Source: a virus. From it: a stretch of 27,331 nt of DNA. The notes beneath the pieces were generated by a model. That model searched no databases and was not told where the DNA came from. It saw only the letters and a program-made list of their open reading frames with translations. Positions within the stretch are counted from its first letter, which is position 1. Each line of letters opens with the position of its first letter. Where the stretch lies: IMG/VR virus record IMGVR_UViG_3300032157_000040, positions 1-27,331 of that record; one strand, given 5' to 3'. Shown piece after piece: positions 3,288 to 25,954 of this stretch. The translations under genes were made by a program, and so were the position numbers.

Positions 3288-3884
3288 TCACTTATAAAGC
3301 TGTCTTTCGTTATTAAATTTATTAATATAATTTTGATTGAATTTACCTTTACGATAATCTCCATATCCTACATTATAGGCTATAATCGTAGCGTCTTTAT
3401 CTTTTAATCCTTTATGATATTGAGATAGAATGTCGACCGATTTCTCTATTTGATGTTCGAGATCTGTTCTTAGTCTTTTAGCATCAAGTTTATGAACATT
3501 TGGTCGAATTTGAGTCAATCCAACCGCAGGATCTTTCTTTAGATCTGAAACAGCTTCCGGTCTAAAACTACTTTCTATTCCAACAATAGTTAAAATATCT
3601 TCGGCTCTAGGAAAAACAGGTTTCTCATGTTTTTTAGCAAGCTTGGCAATTTGTAAAGCTAATTCAGGATTTATTTTATATTTAGATAGAATTTTATCTG
3701 CTAAATCCTGTGCATTATGTCGAACTGGTGCCGGATTAACTTTTTGCTGAACAGGTCTATCAAAATTAGGAATTTTAGGATTAAAATTTCCTAATGCTGC
3801 CAATCCAAGAATTCCGCCGGCGGCGGCTTTCTTGAAATTTATTTCGTCCAGTTGTTTTTCGGTTAAAACTTCATATAATTTCAT
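3288..3884 (-). CDS. Lytic transglycosylase (SLT fold) with capsid-targeting-like N-terminus
   Basis: Predicted to cleave peptidoglycan glycan strands. The SLT-type lysozyme motifs are clear: the catalytic Glu in VGIESSFRP (E104), GLTQI (122-126) and AYNVG near residue 170. Residues 1-9 (MKLYEVLTE) resemble the T4 capsid-targeting peptide MKTYQEFIAE and end in L-x-E, the T4 prohead-protease cleavage pattern. A short Ala/Gly/Leu-rich hydrophobic stretch follows (about 20-33). It starts just after the stop of the 290-aa gene, behind a TAGGG ribosome site, so it should share that gene's late promoter. No holin-like neighbour is visible, so a virion-associated entry enzyme is more likely than an endolysin; this is inference. 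Confidence 0.85.
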   Translation of the reverse strand: MKLYEVLTEKQLDEINFKKAAAGGILGLAALGNFNPKIPNFDRPVQQKVNPAPVRHNAQDLADKILSKYKINPELALQIAKLAKKHEKPVFPRAEDILTIVGIESSFRPEAVSDLKKDPAVGLTQIRPNVHKLDAKRLRTDLEHQIEKSVDILSQYHKGLKDKDATIIAYNVGYGDYRKGKFNQNYINKFNNERQLYK

Positions 3885-4817: not shown

Positions 4818-5420
4818 TTAGCTAGCCCATGGATCAGTAACAACAAGAGTGTCTCCACGCTTCATTACGTTGCTGCTATTCCAGTCTTCCCCACTGTATC
4901 CAATTATAAAATCCAGTTCTGGCCAATGTTCTTCGAGATAATCTGAATTTTCGTCCGAATCAAGATAATCGAATAAGGAATAGCCCCTCTTTGGTTCTAT
5001 ACTGGGGGCTATATACTTCTTAAGTATAGGATCATTCTCTCCGTCAAGCTCTTGTAGTAGTTCCATTCTAATAGCATGACTGTTTTTCCCAATGTTTATG
5101 GGCCTTCCTCGAACCTTTGGCACGTGAGGATTGTTTTGATTTTTACGTATAACTTTTAGAAACTTTTCGTATCCCCGATCATCGACGAATACCTTATAGA
5201 CATAGGGATAGTTAGGATGTTGGAAAATATTAGCAAAATAGCCATCAGTGTTTATCTTCTTCCATCCATGCTGTTCTGCTGTTTTAATGAAATTATTCAT
5301 CGAATCAGTCTCGTACTTATAATCACTAATTTGATTGGTTTCAATCTCCTTGGGTTTCAATTGCGAGGCTGCTCTGTTAAGTGGGTGTGATTTGTATCCA
5401 GTAAGTTCGTTTAGTCGCAT
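4818..5420 (-). CDS. Minimal protein-kinase-like protein A
   Basis: A 200-aa protein whose layout matches a protein-kinase fold. It has a glycine/aromatic loop near GYFANIF (60-66), a candidate ATP-binding Lys in VYKVF (K76) and a hinge-like MELLQEL (119-125). The catalytic-loop-like GEDWNSSNVM has D179 and N184 at the canonical D-x4-N spacing. VVTDPWAS then places the putative metal-binding Asp at D196. The protein stops three residues after that Asp-Pro, so it has no activation loop or C-lobe. The N-terminus MRLNELTG recalls the start of kinase-like protein B. The late-type element directly abuts the ATG, with no Shine-Dalgarno, so the message may be leaderless. Activity and substrate are unknown. 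Confidence 0.75.
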   Translation of the reverse strand: MRLNELTGYKSHPLNRAASQLKPKEIETNQISDYKYETDSMNNFIKTAEQHGWKKINTDGYFANIFQHPNYPYVYKVFVDDRGYEKFLKVIRKNQNNPHVPKVRGRPINIGKNSHAIRMELLQELDGENDPILKKYIAPSIEPKRGYSLFDYLDSDENSDYLEEHWPELDFIIGYSGEDWNSSNVMKRGDTLVVTDPWAS

Positions 5421-8986: not shown

Positions 8987-9760
8987 TTATGCTTTATCCA
9001 TTAAATCAAGTCTCACAATATCATCTTCAGATAATATTGAACCGATTTGTGTTTCGACGAAAACGAGATCCGTATCGCCAGTATTTGTAATCTTGTGAAG
9101 TGTTGCAACATCAATCGCATAGATCGATCCTTTCTTGCAACTAAATCCATAATTATCAATTGCTACAATTCCTGTACCAGAGATAATATACCAACCTTCA
9201 CTTCTATGATTGTGATATTGGAGGCTTATAGCCTGTTTCGGTTTAATTGTAACTTCTTTTACAAGATAACCTTCGCCTCTATGTAAAATCTTGTAAAATC
9301 CCCAATTCTTGTTTGTTATGTCATTTTTCCAATTATCAAAATACCAAGAACTTGAATATCTTTTATCTGTTCCGCCAATACCAAATCTTAAAATAACGTC
9401 GCATTCCTTTGCTACTTTTTCTTCAGGTATATTTTCAATGGTTCTATCACCACCATTCATAAAGTATATTGTGCTTTTCGGATAAAAAGCTCTAGTTTGG
9501 CGTATTGCTTCATTAGCTGTATCATCAGCATCATCTTTAGGTGAAAGGGCATGAACTTGTGAAATATATTTTATACCTCTCAGTATTTCCGTTCTATCGT
9601 ATTGTGGCATAAAAGCCTTACCTTTTTTACGAATTAGCCATTCATCAGAATTCACAAAAACAATTACATCATCCACCCATCTGGAGGATTCTCTGAAATA
9701 TTTAATATGACCGGGTGTTATAGGATCAAATCCACCTGTTAAAATTGCAATTCGATGCAT
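8987..9760 (-). CDS. Nucleotidyltransferase-cupin fusion protein
   Basis: A two-domain protein. Residues 1-145 form a cytidylyltransferase-type Rossmann domain, with GGFDPITPGH (9-18, the T/H-x-G-H nucleotide-binding motif in its T form) and an SSSWYF segment corresponding to the family's I-S-x-x-x-I motif. Residues 165-257 form a cupin like that of type II mannose-phosphate isomerase/ManC: LQYHNHRSEGWYIISGTG, then IYAIDVATLHKITNTGD, ending SEDDIVRLD. The expected roles are activation of a sugar or polyol phosphate with a nucleotide, plus a sugar-isomerase/epimerase-like step. The target could be a glycan or modified DNA; the sequence does not say. The start overlaps the previous stop (TAATG). 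Confidence 0.85.
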   Translation of the reverse strand: MHRIAILTGGFDPITPGHIKYFRESSRWVDDVIVFVNSDEWLIRKKGKAFMPQYDRTEILRGIKYISQVHALSPKDDADDTANEAIRQTRAFYPKSTIYFMNGGDRTIENIPEEKVAKECDVILRFGIGGTDKRYSSSWYFDNWKNDITNKNWGFYKILHRGEGYLVKEVTIKPKQAISLQYHNHRSEGWYIISGTGIVAIDNYGFSCKKGSIYAIDVATLHKITNTGDTDLVFVETQIGSILSEDDIVRLDLMDKA

Positions 9761-19167: not shown

Positions 19168-19676
19168 TTAGTAATCCCTCTCCGGTTCATCATAATAATC
19201 ATCTTTGGAGGGTGGTTCAATCTTTTCTGCTTCATCTTGGAACGCTTTTTGTAAAAGATTAGAAATAGTTATAGGATTAAGAAGTTGTTTTTGAACCGAA
19301 TATGGTAAATTTTCTTGAAGGGTTTCTAATGAAACTACTTCATTATCTAAATAACAATCTGAATCAGGATCAGGAGATGCAGAATGAATTGAAACATCAC
19401 TTATTGCTGCATAGGTTGATGTGGTATAGGTCGGACTGTCTGTTCTATGATTCCACCCTGTCGGCTGTTCATCGGTTTCCCAATCAAAATCTGCACTTGC
19501 AGATACATTTAACGAAAGACCAATTTGATGTGGTCGATTATCATTACCGATAGCAGTCGCTGATAAAGTTAGAATACCTTCATAAGAAATAGTATCATCA
19601 GAAGAATCAAAGTCTCCTTCATAATCTGTTAGAGATACATCGGAGACTACGGCGGATTCAGTTAACTTTTTTTTTT
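19168..19676 (-). CDS. C-terminal extension of the 372-aa protein, reached by -1 frameshift
   Basis: An open frame from 19683 to the TAA at 19168-19170 with no ATG, GTG or TTG start near its beginning. It would encode about 166 residues beginning KLTESAVVSDVSLTDYEGDF. The middle is a beta-rich domain (ISYEGILTLSATAIGNDNR, then IGLSLNVSASADFDW) and the end is a helical, acidic tail. The upstream 372-aa frame ends on a run of ten A (19667-19676) reading AAA AAA AAA AGT TAA; slipping back one base there continues as AAG TTA ACT into this frame. Together they would make about 536 aa. Programmed slippage, transcriptional slippage or a homopolymer sequencing error are all possible. Similar beta domains occur, from memory, in other phage proteins. 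Confidence 0.65.
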
Positions 19677-20780
19677 GGTTTTTTTAAATTTTTTGGCGCC
19701 GCGACGGCTATCTTTTTTATCTTTCGGCGGTAATGGTTGTGGATTCAGCATCCTATCACTGGCGGCTTCCTCTAAGAATGATCTATAACCGTAAACCAAT
19801 TCTTTGTGAACTTCTTCAAGTTCTGTTTTCATTTTTTTCTGTTCTGGGTTATCTCCATGACGAGCACCAGAAGGTCCTACGGCCTTCACAACTGGACCGT
19901 CAGCACCATTTGGAAAATAATCATTTCCAGATGCAACATGGACATCATGATAACCATTTTGAAGATCTTCTTCTAATTCATCTTCTACGGATTCTTCTTC
20001 AGATTCAACAGTTTCTTCTTCAAGACCCATTTCACCTTGTCTCATACTCCAATCTGTGTAATCATCGTCAAATTCATCACTATATTGAGCTTTAATGGCA
20101 TCAGAAATCTCATCTATTTCCGAAGCATCTAAACCCTCTTCATCGAAATTACGCAAAACAAGATCGAGTGCTTCCTGTGGTTCAACAAAACTATCAGTAT
20201 AGTTTCGATACATCTCAAGGCCTCTGGTAACATTTTCATTACCAGCTGTTGGGTCTAAACCTTGTGCAGCACTTCCCATTTCACCCTGGTTCATAGCCCA
20301 ATCTGTATAATCACCGGATTCTTCAAATCCTGCATCATAAAGATTTTCTTCCATCTTGCAGGCTTCACGAGCATTCTTAGGATTAGATTGACGGCAGGAA
20401 TCAACGTGTGCTTCTTCTACATGTTTCATAGCACTGCTTAATTGTTTTGTGCCTTTATCAGCTTGATTGAATTCTTTTGATACCTTATCGGACGGGCATG
20501 AATCATAATCAGCACCATGAGCACAAGCAGCCATGAAACGTGCTTGCTTTTCTGAACTTGATTTTTCTTCTAAGTTTTGTGCAGATTTTTTCAAATTTTC
20601 ACGATCACTAAGTTTACCTTCTTTTTCCTGATCTTGAACATCTTTAGGAGTAAGTGGTTTCTCACCTTTCTCTTTCCTAAGATAGGCAGGAACTTCGTGG
20701 CGTCTAGGTCCATCTTCATTGAGGCCTGGAATAGCCATTACACCTTCCATAAGGGTCATCATTTCTCTCATACTTTTCAT
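19662..20780 (-). CDS. Candidate internal head protein, acidic, with short repeats (372 aa or longer)
   Basis: The N-terminus MKSMREMMTLME has the shape and L-x-E end of a T4-type capsid-targeting peptide. Residues near 75-115 (KQARFMAACAHGADYDSC... SKEFNQADKG) match a small motif common in phage proteins. Two copies of D-Y-T-D-W-(A/S)-M-x-Q-G-E-M-G occur, encoded near 20275-20315 and 20026-20064. A long Glu-rich stretch follows, then a Lys-rich end (RRGAKKFKKTKKKS). It overlaps the preceding gene by ATGA. The annotated stop is probably bypassed by -1 frameshift on the A10 run (see the extension). A core/scaffold or packaged protein is the likely role; no enzyme motif is seen. Confidence 0.8.
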   Translation of the reverse strand: MKSMREMMTLMEGVMAIPGLNEDGPRRHEVPAYLRKEKGEKPLTPKDVQDQEKEGKLSDRENLKKSAQNLEEKSSSEKQARFMAACAHGADYDSCPSDKVSKEFNQADKGTKQLSSAMKHVEEAHVDSCRQSNPKNAREACKMEENLYDAGFEESGDYTDWAMNQGEMGSAAQGLDPTAGNENVTRGLEMYRNYTDSFVEPQEALDLVLRNFDEEGLDASEIDEISDAIKAQYSDEFDDDYTDWSMRQGEMGLEEETVESEEESVEDELEEDLQNGYHDVHVASGNDYFPNGADGPVVKAVGPSGARHGDNPEQKKMKTELEEVHKELVYGYRSFLEEAASDRMLNPQPLPPKDKKDSRRGAKKFKKTKKKS

Positions 20781-21451
20781 AGCATACCTACCTTTAACAG
20801 GTTAGGCTTCTTGATTCTGCCAAATAGCCCAACATCATCTTTGTTTAAATTCTTTGGATCATTAAATCCATCATAGCCCTTCGGCAGTGTGGAATGATCG
20901 GTTTTAGCAGCCGGACTTAGTGGGTTTTCGACAGTAACTATTTCACGTTCCTTGCGGACTTTTTCAAGCTCCTTCAAGAAACTTACATTGTACTTCTCTC
21001 CATAAAGTGCCTCGTCTGGATTTTCGTCAGCCATATAATCACTACCGAGTCTAGTCTTATATTTCTTTTTGTATTCTTCGGAATGTCTATCAATATATAA
21101 ATCTGTTTCAATCTGTCTTGGATCATTTTCAGAATAAACTGCAAGACATGCTGGAGAAATTCCAACACAATTACAAACGTATATTCTTAGAAAATCTAGT
21201 GAACCCGGATATCCAAGTGTTATATCACAAATAAATACTGGTGTAAATTTTACATTAGGAAAATCTAATGGACTTTCTTGGATAGGTGTTTTTCTAAATG
21301 AAGATGCTGATTTAAGATCATATTTGGCTAAACCTGCTTCAAGCTGATCAATCATAACATCTGTCATTTCATTCACGGCAAATTTTAAGACATATTTGTA
21401 TTCTGTCTTATTTTCTGCAACGTAGTTAATAAATGATTTCTTTTCTGCCAT
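20777..21451 (-). CDS. Conserved-looking T4-type phage protein, candidate packaged protein (224 aa)
   Basis: The N-terminus MAEKKSFINYVAE resembles a capsid-targeting peptide with cleavage after V-A-E. The following domain reads YKYVLKFAVNEMTDVMIDQL, RKTPIQESPLDFPNVKF (53-69) and a FICDITLGYPGSLDFLRIYV strand-helix region (73-92). This gives a ferredoxin-like pattern I recall from unassigned proteins of other T4-type phages. The C-terminus is charged and ends RIKKPNLLKVGML. A GATAAATA late promoter and GGAG precede it; the promoter overlaps the end of the small terminase gene. Late expression fits a head protein. Confidence 0.75.
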   Translation of the reverse strand: MAEKKSFINYVAENKTEYKYVLKFAVNEMTDVMIDQLEAGLAKYDLKSASSFRKTPIQESPLDFPNVKFTPVFICDITLGYPGSLDFLRIYVCNCVGISPACLAVYSENDPRQIETDLYIDRHSEEYKKKYKTRLGSDYMADENPDEALYGEKYNVSFLKELEKVRKEREIVTVENPLSPAAKTDHSTLPKGYDGFNDPKNLNKDDVGLFGRIKKPNLLKVGML

Positions 21452-22107: not shown

Positions 22108-22548
22108 TTAACCCTTCCCTTTTGGGTTATTGAAAATATTATTCTCAGTCATTACTCTAAATCCCATGCCACGATTTTTTGCAAACTCTTGTGCCGCCTG
22201 CCATTTGAACGTATTCAATGCGACCGCTGCCTTAGCCTTTTGACTTTTTGCCTGTTCTAGGAATGTCTCTTTGGCTGGCTTTACTTCAATAATCTCTGCT
22301 ATTTGATTACCTTTAGCATCCACATAAGTAACAACAAAATCCGGGACATACACAGTGTATTTACCGGTGAATGGATTTGTGTAGGGTATCTTAATGGATT
22401 CACTTGCCCAGGTTTTTATATTTGGATTATTATCAAATAACAACATTACCTTATGTTCCCAAGATGACCTGAAAACAATAGGATATGTACCAACATACTT
22501 TTCCGGGTGTTCCGGAGTATATTTTCCTTGAAAATATGATCTAGACAT
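22108..22548 (-). CDS. 4: Head-completion nuclease gp4-like
   Basis: In T4 this protein trims or seals packaged DNA at the head vertex before tail joining. The N-terminus MSRSYFQGKYTPEHPEKYVG and the RSSWEHKVM segment are very close to T4 gp4 in pattern. The PD-(D/E)xK-type nuclease residues are E31 in SSWEHK, D70 in YVPDF, and E88/K90 in IIEVKP. The length of 146 aa matches T4 gp4 (about 150). It is coupled to the kinase-like gene by TAATG. The C-terminus is NNPKGKG. Confidence 0.93.
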   Translation of the reverse strand: MSRSYFQGKYTPEHPEKYVGTYPIVFRSSWEHKVMLLFDNNPNIKTWASESIKIPYTNPFTGKYTVYVPDFVVTYVDAKGNQIAEIIEVKPAKETFLEQAKSQKAKAAVALNTFKWQAAQEFAKNRGMGFRVMTENNIFNNPKGKG

Positions 22549-23186
22549 TATGCTATTGGGTCTGATAATACCAATTGAGGTATGCCTCCTACTTTCCGAA
22601 ACATAATATTATCTTCTTTACCAGCTATATCAAGGCCAAATCCTACAGATCTTTTTTGAGCACTATGAATTATCTTTAATGCTTGAGCAAATTGTTTATC
22701 TTTAATGTTTCCAGGATTTTTTTCGTATGCATCAGTTATTAAAGCATCTATTGATGGATTTTTTATTTTTCCTAGCGTCTGATAATTATGAAACATATAA
22801 GATTTAAGATGTTCAATTGTTTCAGGATCAACGCTTGACATAGGATGCAAATGTTCAAGAACCGCATAATAAAAATTCATATTATTATCTTTTACGGATT
22901 TAAATTTAATAATTTTTGGAAAATAAGGATTTTTGTATCCTCTCTTTTCTAATGCCTGAATAATTTTAACAAATACAACATACGGATCATCACTGAAATC
23001 ATTTAACATAGCCTGGTGAGGAATTTTTATTACTTCACCTTCCCTTTTTGCGGCTTGTCCTTTTCGAACCATGGCATAACCACCATCACCAATATTTGAT
23101 CCTACTTTCTGTAATTTTGCTAATTTTCTTGAGCCGGGATCTAACCGTGGATCATCCTCATTTACAAATAATTCAAATAATCTCAT
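22548..23186 (-). CDS. Minimal protein-kinase-like protein B
   Basis: A 212-aa protein with a kinase N-lobe-like pattern: glycine-rich loop IGDGGYAMV (32-40), Lys in VIKIP (K54) and hinge-like AVLEHL (108-113). The catalytic segment GLDIAGKEDNIMF has D186 and N193, two residues longer than the canonical D-x4-N. QLVLSDPIA holds the metal-binding Asp candidate D209 and ends the protein, with no activation loop or C-lobe. The N-terminus MRLFELFVNE resembles a capsid-targeting peptide. It is embedded in the late virion operon and coupled on both sides (ATGA and TAATG), so it is made late, with head and tail proteins. Together with protein A it suggests a paralogous pair. Substrate unknown. Confidence 0.75.
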   Translation of the reverse strand: MRLFELFVNEDDPRLDPGSRKLAKLQKVGSNIGDGGYAMVRKGQAAKREGEVIKIPHQAMLNDFSDDPYVVFVKIIQALEKRGYKNPYFPKIIKFKSVKDNNMNFYYAVLEHLHPMSSVDPETIEHLKSYMFHNYQTLGKIKNPSIDALITDAYEKNPGNIKDKQFAQALKIIHSAQKRSVGFGLDIAGKEDNIMFRKVGGIPQLVLSDPIA

Positions 23187-23656
23187 GATCTTATCTCGCG
23201 TGCTTGCAGACTAAATCGATTACTTGCTGTGGTAACAATTCCTACTTGATTTCCAGGATCTCTAAGATTATTTAATGCTCTATAAGCATTAGGTGCAAAG
23301 AAAAGTTTTCCATCAGCACCGGTTTGTTCAAGCAATGCCTGCGGACTAATTCCTAATTGTGATGCCATATCAATTGCTAATCCAGTCATTGTATCGGCAT
23401 ATAAGGGACCTACTCCACGCGACAAAAAGAAACACTTTGTAGAATCATACGCGCCGGGCGAATAATTTCCTACAACTCCTAATCCAAGCCCAGATTGTAA
23501 TAAAGATCCAGCATTAGGAAATACAGTAGGGCCAGATGCATATTTAAATGTATTGGTAGGAACACCATTTACAGATTTAACAGTTTTCTGCGTACCTAAA
23601 TAGGTAAGCATCTGTGAACTAAAACGGCCAATTGTCGCAATATTCGGATTAGCCAT
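23183..23656 (-). CDS. Probable virion protein (157 aa)
   Basis: A 157-aa protein with a Gly/Ser/Asn-rich N-terminal half and IDMASQLGISPQALLEQTG (about 96-113), then FFAPNAYRALNNLRDPGNQV. It has no catalytic motif or membrane segment. Its start overlaps the stop of the baseplate-like gene (TAATG) and its stop overlaps the kinase-like gene (ATGA). By context and composition it is a minor virion or baseplate component; family not recognised. Confidence 0.7.
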   Translation of the reverse strand: MANPNIATIGRFSSQMLTYLGTQKTVKSVNGVPTNTFKYASGPTVFPNAGSLLQSGLGLGVVGNYSPGAYDSTKCFFLSRGVGPLYADTMTGLAIDMASQLGISPQALLEQTGADGKLFFAPNAYRALNNLRDPGNQVGIVTTASNRFSLQAREIRS

Positions 23657-24902: not shown

Positions 24903-25047
24903 TATTATTATTTTCATTCTGTTTTCTGATATATGCCTCATCGGTTAATTTCTTCAATAACTCAACCGCTGAAATTCCTTCTTTTAGCAATTTAATCTTC
25001 TCTTCCTCTGATAACTCTTTTTTCAATTCATTTATTTGTTTGTTCAT
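24898..25047 (-). CDS. Short helical ORF downstream of the homing endonuclease (49 aa)
   Basis: An ATG at 25047, inside the end of the endonuclease gene, opens a 49-aa frame: MNKQINELKKELSEEEKIKL, then LKEGISAVELLKKLTDEAYI and a short polar end. It is charged and likely coiled-coil. It fills an otherwise empty 140-base gap and overlaps the endonuclease gene by 20 bases. No family recognised. Confidence 0.6.
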   Translation of the reverse strand: MNKQINELKKELSEEEKIKLLKEGISAVELLKKLTDEAYIRKQNENNNR

Positions 25048-25954
25048 CTATATTTTCCTTTAATAAATTTCCATCTTTGTCAAAAATCATAAATTGAAAA
25101 TTATAGCCGGCATCAATACAGGCTTGACGCTTGAGGAGATTGATATTATACCAACCGATAAATCCATCATATGTATATTTTGATTTTACCTCAATAATAA
25201 GATTTTTCTTTGGTATATAAATGTCCGGATAATATCTATGCTTTTTATTGTTTTCTAAATAAAATATAGGTAAAATATCAGGATTTACACATATCTCATC
25301 CTCTACAAATTTTTCTAATAATAAATTTAAACATTTGTCTTCGTATCCCTGCAATTTTATTGTTTTTCCAGATGGCAATAAATAATTCTTTTTCTTGTAA
25401 TATCTATTTCTATCAAATGTATTCTTAAAATGCATAACATTTGTTACGCCGTATTTTTCTAAATTAGTTTCTACTTTTTTATCTTGAGTAATTTTTAATT
25501 TGGATGAATGTTCGACACCATATTTTTCTAAATTGGTATTTTTAGTCTTCTGTTTGAAACTATCTAATCTCTGTGGTTTCTCTATACCATATTTTTCTAA
25601 ACATGTTTGTTTAGATTTATTTTCAAATTCTTCAAGAAGTTGAGGTTTATCAGTTCCGTGTCTTTCTACATTAGTATCTTTAATTTTCTCTCTAAATTCT
25701 TCAAGATCCATAGCATTAGTAATTCCTTCACCATACTTTTCGGTAAATGAATTTTTAATTTTATCTTTTATTTCTTTAGATTTTGATGGATTAGAAACAC
25801 CATATCTTAATAAAGAAGTCTGTTTTACCTTATCGGCAACTCCTATACGTTGGCAGGAAATAGAACAATACTTTTTGTATTGTCCATCCTTCCTGCGTAT
25901 TTCTGTCACTATCGTTTTACAACTTTTATTATTACATTTTTGACCATTTGCCAT
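25028..25954 (-). CDS. Free-standing homing endonuclease, zinc finger, six repeats and PD-(D/E)xK nuclease
   Basis: The N-terminus has a C7-x4-C12 and C30-x3-C34 zinc-binding pattern. Residues about 40-180 contain six degenerate helical repeats of 23-27 aa built on K-x-T-x-L-E-K-Y-G-V-x-x-P, similar to DNA-recognition repeats in phage intergenic nucleases. The C-terminal domain has a PD-(D/E)xK core: YYPDIYIP (P243/D244), then LIIEVKSK (E255, K257). The 308-aa protein is A/T- and Lys-rich compared with the virion genes around it. It lies between the tail tube gene and a baseplate-like gene, has its own sigma70 promoter and a strong AAAGGAG ribosome site, and is therefore likely a mobile element expressed early. 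Confidence 0.88.
   Translation of the reverse strand: MANGQKCNNKSCKTIVTEIRRKDGQYKKYCSISCQRIGVADKVKQTSLLRYGVSNPSKSKEIKDKIKNSFTEKYGEGITNAMDLEEFREKIKDTNVERHGTDKPQLLEEFENKSKQTCLEKYGIEKPQRLDSFKQKTKNTNLEKYGVEHSSKLKITQDKKVETNLEKYGVTNVMHFKNTFDRNRYYKKKNYLLPSGKTIKLQGYEDKCLNLLLEKFVEDEICVNPDILPIFYLENNKKHRYYPDIYIPKKNLIIEVKSKYTYDGFIGWYNINLLKRQACIDAGYNFQFMIFDKDGNLLKENIDEQTNK

What the first reader, a model, noticed from the sequence alone, without database searches (positions are those of the whole stretch)
22548..23186. Kinase-like protein B inside the late head-and-baseplate operon, paralogous in design to protein A
Seen in sequence: a Gly-rich loop (32-40), K54, D186/N193 and a C-terminal SDPIA ending, mirroring TDPWAS of protein A. 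It is translationally coupled between a virion-like gene and gp4, so it is made at the same time as virion proteins. Two such genes 17 kb apart in one phage suggest a family with a shared function. Late synthesis makes little sense for a takeover enzyme unless it is packaged and injected at the next infection, as T4 Alt is.
Basis: partly seen in the sequence, partly recalled or inferred. Interest (0 to 1): 0.8.

Follow-up and report, generated by a model that had tools for sequence, protein, structure and literature searches.

The report
Phage kinase tagged for head packaging
A giant T4-like phage carries, inside its particle-building operon, a small protein kinase related to the phage T7 takeover kinase; its first residues look like the T4 tag that loads proteins into the phage head, so it is probably packed in the particle and injected into the next host cell.

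Summary
Window 22548-23186 (-) encodes a 212-aa kinase-like protein, B. It overlaps a virion-protein gene (ATGA) and the gp4 head-completion gene (TAATG). B belongs to a family of about 20 found here, most in the same slot; other relatives have that slot empty. Thirteen of 14 aligned members match the T7 gp0.7 kinase PHROG, all but B itself. A canonical member folds confidently (pLDDT 89) as a protein kinase that ends at the DFG position. B matches protein A only through profiles (97.7%, E=1.5e-12).

New here is the N-terminus M[KR]L[YFI][ED][LI], followed by an unconserved linker. The T7 kinase lacks it. Unrelated genes of these phages carry a similar start, as do MS-detected virion proteins of the relative PA5oct. 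On one contig seven adjacent genes carry it, including ADP-ribosyltransferases, one fused to a B-type kinase. It resembles the T4 capsid-targeting sequences of internal proteins and Alt.

Best reading: a gp0.7-type kinase converted into head cargo, injected with the DNA. Packaging, injection, late timing and activity are inferred, not shown. B's own catalytic loop has a two-residue insertion, so B may be weak or inactive. New variant of a known kind.

The parts
22548..23186 (-). protein B: minimal T7 gp0.7-type protein kinase, 212 aa
   Evidence: ORF; family alignment; profile match to A and T7 gp0.7; fold (canonical member)
23157..23186 (-). N-terminal head-targeting-like signature MRLFELFVNE (codons 1-10)
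   Evidence: codons 1-7 are 74% identical among 5 members found without using this motif, codons 8-30 only 13%; shared with unrelated proteins; cf. T4 IPIII MKTYQEFIAE and Alt MELITELFDED
23067..23093 (-). glycine-rich loop IGDGGYAMV (codons 32-40)
23025..23027 (-). beta-3 lysine K54
   Evidence: nearly invariant column
22608..22631 (-). catalytic-loop equivalent D186...N193, with a 2-residue insertion relative to the family
   Evidence: invariant D and N; other members D-x4-N
22557..22562 (-). DP (D209-P210), DFG-equivalent; the protein ends two residues later
   Evidence: invariant; alignment with solved kinases stops at their DFG position
22108..22548 (-). gp4 head-completion/head-closure protein, overlaps the B stop codon
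   Evidence: phrog_218 E=4.7e-40; 52% to PA5oct
23183..23656 (-). 157-aa virion protein gene overlapping the B start codon
   Evidence: 30% to PA5oct gp285, noted ESI-MS/MS
4818..5420 (-). protein A: second gp0.7-type kinase-like protein, N-terminus MRLNEL
   Evidence: phrog_15752 E=3.2e-8; profile match to the B family E=1.5e-12
3288..3884 (-). SLT transglycosylase with the same N-terminal signature (MKLYEVLTE)
   Evidence: Pfam SLT E=9e-11; N-terminus
19662..20780 (-). PA5oct gp281 (MS-detected) family; conserved N-terminal LxE-G, prohead-protease-like site
20777..21451 (-). PA5oct gp282 (MS-detected) family; N-terminus KKSFxxYVAE, like the T4 IP tag

Best explanation
B is a minimal protein kinase of the phage T7 gp0.7 type: N-lobe plus catalytic core, ending right after the Mg-binding Asp, with no gp0.7 shutoff domain. 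It has been given a short N-terminal capsid-targeting-like sequence and is translated with head-completion genes. Proposed mechanism: made late, drawn into the prohead core by residues 1 to about 10, packaged with the DNA, injected at the next infection, and then phosphorylating host takeover or defence targets before any phage gene is expressed, as T4 Alt does by ADP-ribosylation. Shown here: gene, coupling, family, fold, A-B homology, shared N-terminal signature, optional presence among relatives. Inferred: late timing, packaging, cleavage, injection, catalysis, targets. B's own catalytic loop is divergent, so B may be a weak or inactive member of an otherwise intact family.
For: Family and fold: 13 of 14 aligned members match phrog_15752, best E=1.5e-9; family profile vs T7 gp0.7 E=2.2e-6 with matching GxGxF, K, DMHSGNIM and DP motifs; canonical member pLDDT 88.9, top viral-structure hits are phage protein kinases including the T7 group, prob 1.0; the 50 rows listed for the B model are all kinase-fold proteins, nearly all protein kinases. 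N-terminus: codons 1-7 74% identical vs 13% for codons 8-30 in B and four relatives found by gp4 linkage. The M[KR]..[ED][LIVF] start is enriched at gene starts over internal Met-Lys/Arg in this phage group, 30/105 vs 12/281, p=2e-10; 15/80 vs 11/251, p=1.4e-4 without contig G015. In PA5oct it is on 6/93 MS-detected vs 4/352 other CDS, p=0.007. Orthologues of MS-detected PA5oct gp246 and gp105 keep such starts in relatives. Contig G015: seven adjacent genes with such or similar starts, two with ART-PolyVal domains, one ART fused to a B-type kinase. Precedent: T4 IP and Alt tags (PMC9958956; PMC12373910).
Against: No virion proteomics exists for this phage, and PA5oct has no B homologue detected by tblastn. 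B alone matches no PHROG or Pfam family. B's D186-N193 spacing is +7 instead of +5. The [LI]xE cleavage site is imperfect in B (VNE), near-absent in several relatives (L004, L009, L014) and absent early in A. In the canonical model residues 7-13 form a strand of the fold, so part of the N-terminal conservation may be structural. The signature is a short, degenerate motif, chosen partly after seeing the data; single-genome enrichment is significant only in the window, G015 and G020. One family member (L054/L055) lies outside the neck operon. The 14-member alignment is biased, since most members were found with a pattern that includes the N-terminus.
Confidence: 0.55

Rival explanations
1. B is a kinase made late that acts in the same infection, not packaged: it phosphorylates structural or late proteins, or the host envelope to exclude superinfecting phages. 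Such a role was proposed for a HipA-like kinase lying between portal and MCP genes of gut phages (PMC8008677).
For: Tight coupling to the 157-aa gene and gp4; published precedent for a late kinase read this way.
Against: Does not explain the N-terminal signature shared with unrelated proteins, virion proteins and ARTs.
Confidence: 0.2
2. B is a pseudokinase or accessory virion/neck component: a kinase fold kept for binding, not catalysis.
For: Two-residue insertion in B's catalytic loop, no family match by itself; neighbours are virion proteins.
Against: Catalytic Asp, Asn, Lys and DP Asp are kept in B and in relatives as diverged as 25%; the gene is absent at this slot in many relatives, so it is not a required neck part.
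Confidence: 0.15
3. B is ordinary accessory cargo (a moron gene) with some other function, placed here because the late operon tolerates insertions; the N-terminus is part of the kinase fold and the resemblance to T4 tags is coincidence.
For: Homing-endonuclease-like genes also interrupt this operon in relatives; residues 7-13 are structured in the canonical model; the motif is short.
Against: The motif occurs on unrelated proteins at gene starts far above the internal background and on MS-detected virion proteins.
Confidence: 0.1

Closest known systems
Phage T7 gp0.7 protein kinase (phrog_15752 / phrog_2828)
   Same: Same kinase core and motif order, including DP in place of DFG and loss of the canonical kinase C-terminal subdomain; profile E=2.2e-6.
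   Different: B lacks the C-terminal shutoff domain, has an M[KR]L[YF]E[LI] N-terminus that gp0.7 lacks, and sits in a structural operon instead of an early region.
T4 Alt and internal proteins IPI-IPIII (CTS-tagged, injected head cargo)
   Same: Short N-terminal sequence of similar design ahead of a catalytic or anti-host protein.
   Different: Different enzyme (kinase, not ADP-ribosyltransferase); tag not identical; packaging and cleavage not demonstrated.
Kinase-PolyVal domain of polyvalent proteins (PF18762; Iyer et al. 2017, PMC5512222)
   Same: Also a kinase lacking the C-terminal subdomain, proposed to be delivered at invasion; L063 has a B-type kinase fused to ART-PolyVal.
   Different: No HMM match of PF18762 to the window or the twelve related contigs searched.
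HipA-like late kinase of Gratiaviridae phages (PMC8008677)
   Same: Kinase gene inside a late structural module.
   Different: Other kinase family; proposed role is superinfection exclusion.

Membership tests
T7 gp0.7-type protein kinase | significant profile match | tested here: met
   13 of 14 aligned members match phrog_15752; family profile vs gp0.7 E=2.2e-6; B alone does not match
T7 gp0.7-type protein kinase | Gly-rich loop, beta-3 Lys, DP Asp, core ends after DP | tested here: met
   fold
T7 gp0.7-type protein kinase | catalytic D-x4-N spacing | tested here: not met
   B has D-x6-N; other aligned family members and T7 gp0.7 have D-x4-N, so the family meets it and B departs from it
T7 gp0.7-type protein kinase | C-terminal host-shutoff domain (feature of T7 gp0.7 itself, not of the kinase domain) | tested here: not met
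   B ends at DPIA
T7 gp0.7-type protein kinase | kinase activity | not testable with these tools
   -
T4-type CTS head cargo | short N-terminal tag of the design M-K/R-x-x-acidic-hydrophobic shared by unrelated proteins of the same phage group | tested here: met
   similarity in design, not an alignment-level match to the T4 tag
T4-type CTS head cargo | prohead-protease site [LI]xE about 8-15 residues in | tested here: inconclusive
   B: VNE-D at residues 8-11; clear in SLT (LTE), RAS14 (LFE) and the L063 603-aa protein (IIE); missing early in A, L004, L009, L014
T4-type CTS head cargo | presence in virion and injection | not testable with these tools
   only indirect: PA5oct ESI-MS/MS notes on other proteins with this N-terminus
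Kinase-PolyVal (PF18762) | HMM match | tested here: not met
   0 of 13 records at E<=10

The most novel reading that the evidence does not exclude
T4-like jumbo phages carry an interchangeable set of injected effector enzymes (kinases, ADP-ribosyltransferases, NUDIX and lytic enzymes, sometimes fused) behind one portable N-terminal head-loading tag. Some phages inject two different gp0.7-type kinases that phosphorylate the host before any phage gene is expressed.
Probability: 0.45. Interest if true: 0.8.

Novelty: new variant of a known kind. Interest (0 to 1): 0.6.

Why it matters
Phage protein kinases are known from T7 as early-made takeover and anti-defence enzymes (gp0.7; JSS1_004 inactivates DndFGH by phosphorylation, PMC12345140). 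No injected, virion-borne phage kinase turned up in the papers I searched. If true, host phosphorylation would begin at DNA entry, and the N-terminal signature would give a simple sequence handle for predicting injected effectors of jumbo phages, most of which are annotated 'hypothetical'.

Tried and rejected
Single-sequence searches with B: no significant Pfam or PHROG hit, only a 25% tblastn hit in Stenotrophomonas phages RAS14/CM1, no viral contig; family profiles were needed. PDB sequence search with the family profile gave nothing relevant. Bacterial/archaeal genomes: no relative found, so not a host gene by this test. Polyvalent-protein kinase (PF18762): no match. T4 late promoter scan: uninformative. 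A pattern scan for M[KR][LF]YE[LIM] with an upstream GG gave 11 contigs, most of them unrelated or very short ORFs, so the motif alone is not diagnostic; one (L063) was the informative ART/kinase cluster. OspG/NleH-type minimal kinases are known to me as an analogous truncation and were not tested. The VIA Z-scores for B itself are modest (best 6.0), so the fold call rests mainly on the canonical member (best Z 8.9) and on sequence.

Full report
What is there. The window is a 27.3-kb IMG/VR fragment of a T4-like jumbo phage related to Pseudomonas phage PA5oct (terminase 61% identical; head completion gp4 52%). Protein B (22548-23186, minus strand, 212 aa) starts in the stop codon of a 157-aa gene (ATGA) and its stop overlaps the gp4 start (TAATG). 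The 157-aa gene is a homologue of PA5oct gp285, noted as detected by ESI-MS/MS in that phage's record.

Family. B alone finds only a weak hit in Stenotrophomonas phages RAS14/CM1 (25%). Using gp4 as an anchor gave 14 related contigs. In four of them (L004, L005, L014, L015) a kinase-like ORF sits between the 157-aa gene and gp4; in L009 it sits before the 157-aa gene; in the other nine the slot next to gp4 is empty. An alignment of these found about 15 more, most in the same slot; L054/L055 carry it elsewhere, next to Clp/DnaJ-like genes. So the gene is optional cargo, usually at one site. In the 14-member alignment M1, L3, E5, G35, D67, N86-P87, F89-P90, D186, N193, D209-P210 are among the invariant columns and K54 is nearly invariant.

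What kind of protein. Thirteen of 14 members match phrog_15752, the PHROG that T7 gp0.7 also matches (E=1.7e-46), best E=1.5e-9; B is the exception. The family profile matches T7 gp0.7 itself (E=2.2e-6) with GxGxF, Lys, D-x-H-S-G-N-I-M and DP aligned. The AlphaFold2 model of B has a confident core (mean pLDDT 69, residues 1-45 low-confidence); its Foldseek list is of kinase-fold proteins, nearly all protein kinases. The canonical member L040 gives pLDDT 88.9 and pTM 0.85, with phage protein kinases including T7-group ones at probability 1.0 and solved protein kinases up to Z 8.9 over 143 residues. The alignments run to about the DFG position of the solved kinases, which is where B ends (the DFG positions are from my own knowledge of those kinases). 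T7 gp0.7 has the same core and then continues into its shutoff region, so ending here is not a truncation artefact.

A and B. By BLASTP they are barely similar. By profile the A family and B family match at 97.7%, E=1.5e-12, over all motifs. Protein A also hits phrog_15752 (E=3.2e-8). They are homologues; their nearest relatives differ, so they need not be a duplication.

The N-terminus. In B and four relatives found without using it (L004, L005, L009, L014), codons 1-7 are 74% identical, codons 8-30 13%, kinase motifs about 40%. RAS14's homologue keeps MKLIDLFED. T7 gp0.7 does not have it. Unrelated proteins of these phages do: in the window the SLT protein (MKLYEVLTE) and A (MRLNEL); small ORFs in the same operon of relatives (MRLYEFVKLDE, MRLIEITIN). 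PA5oct's record marks 93 CDS as ESI-MS/MS-detected; M[KR]..[ED][LIVF] starts are on 6 of these and 4 of the other 352 (p=0.007; a regex tuned on the data gives 8 vs 2, p=9e-5). Homologues of MS-detected gp246, gp105 and gp309 in relatives have such starts or close variants (MRARELFEN, MRLQELFLVE, MRASEVINE). Across six contigs the motif is at 30 of 105 gene starts beginning M[KR] against 12 of 281 internal M[KR] (p=2e-10), and 15/80 vs 11/251 without the richest contig (p=1.4e-4). T4's own tags are MKTYQEFIAE (IPII/III), MKTFKEF (IPI), MELITELFDED (Alt); T4 CTSs target proteins to the prohead core and the N-terminal peptides are removed by gp21 (PMC9958956), and IPs are injected anti-restriction proteins (PMC12373910).

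The strongest single piece. Contig G015 (L063) has a run of adjacent genes starting MRAREFTKT, MRAREFIIPE, MRASEFLHT, MLITEIIDT, MRLYEIIIE, MRFNEIVEA, MRFREIVEG. The MLITEII gene is a B-type kinase (profile E=5e-14). The MRFREIV gene has an ART-PolyVal domain (E=2e-25) fused to a second B-type kinase (E=1e-11). MRASEF is ART-PolyVal, MRLYEII carries NUDIX. Kinases of the B type thus share an N-terminus and a cluster, and once a polypeptide, with ADP-ribosyltransferases, the enzyme class of T4 Alt. The window's terminase has no match on that contig, so its kinship to the window phage is not established.

Mechanism. Most likely B is loaded into the prohead by its N-terminus, injected with the DNA, and phosphorylates host proteins at once. 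Shown: gene, family, fold, shared N-terminal signature, optional distribution. Inferred: late timing (no late promoter evidence), packaging, processing, injection, activity, targets. JSS1_004, a phage kinase with an N-terminal kinase and C-terminal shutoff domain, inactivates the DndFGH restriction complex by phosphorylation (PMC12345140), so an anti-defence target is plausible.

Weak points. B has a two-residue insertion between D186 and N193 and may be inactive. The LxE site is poor in B and missing in several relatives. In the canonical model residues 7-13 are a strand, so some N-terminal conservation may be structural. The motif is short and partly post hoc. I know of no virion data for any phage with a detected B homologue.

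Comparison. Closest known: T7 gp0.7 for the enzyme, T4 Alt/IPs for the delivery. Kinase-PolyVal is a parallel case of a C-lobe-less kinase in invasion proteins (PMC5512222) but its HMM does not match. Hence a new variant of a known kind: known kinase type, unexpected delivery route.

Noticed in passing
L063 1038-11151 (contig G015 50200-60310): Run of seven adjacent minus-strand genes with tag-like N-termini, including two ART-PolyVal proteins, one of them fused to a B-type kinase; 15 of 25 M[KR]-starting genes on the contig carry the motif.
   Followed up: partly
window 19662-20780: PA5oct gp281 (MS-detected) family with a conserved N-terminal LxE-G (LMEG, LTEG, LNEG), a likely prohead-protease site.
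   Followed up: partly
window 20777-21451: PA5oct gp282 (MS-detected) family with N-terminus KKSFxxYVAE, close in design to T4 IPIII KTYQEFIAE.
   Followed up: partly
window 3288-3884: SLT transglycosylase with N-terminus MKLYEVLTE, possibly another head-packaged enzyme.
   Followed up: no
L003 2905-3594; similar ORFs in L004, L011, L048, L053: Papain-like cysteine protease gene (Pfam C1, E=4e-11 in L003) between tail sheath and tube genes in relatives; no such ORF is listed at that place in the window.
   Followed up: partly
window 25028-25954: DUF7487 protein between the tube gene and the 410-aa tail gene; relatives have other inserted genes at this site or none.
   Followed up: no
window 8987-9760: Fusion of a cytidylyltransferase-like domain with a mannose-6-phosphate isomerase-like cupin.
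   Followed up: no
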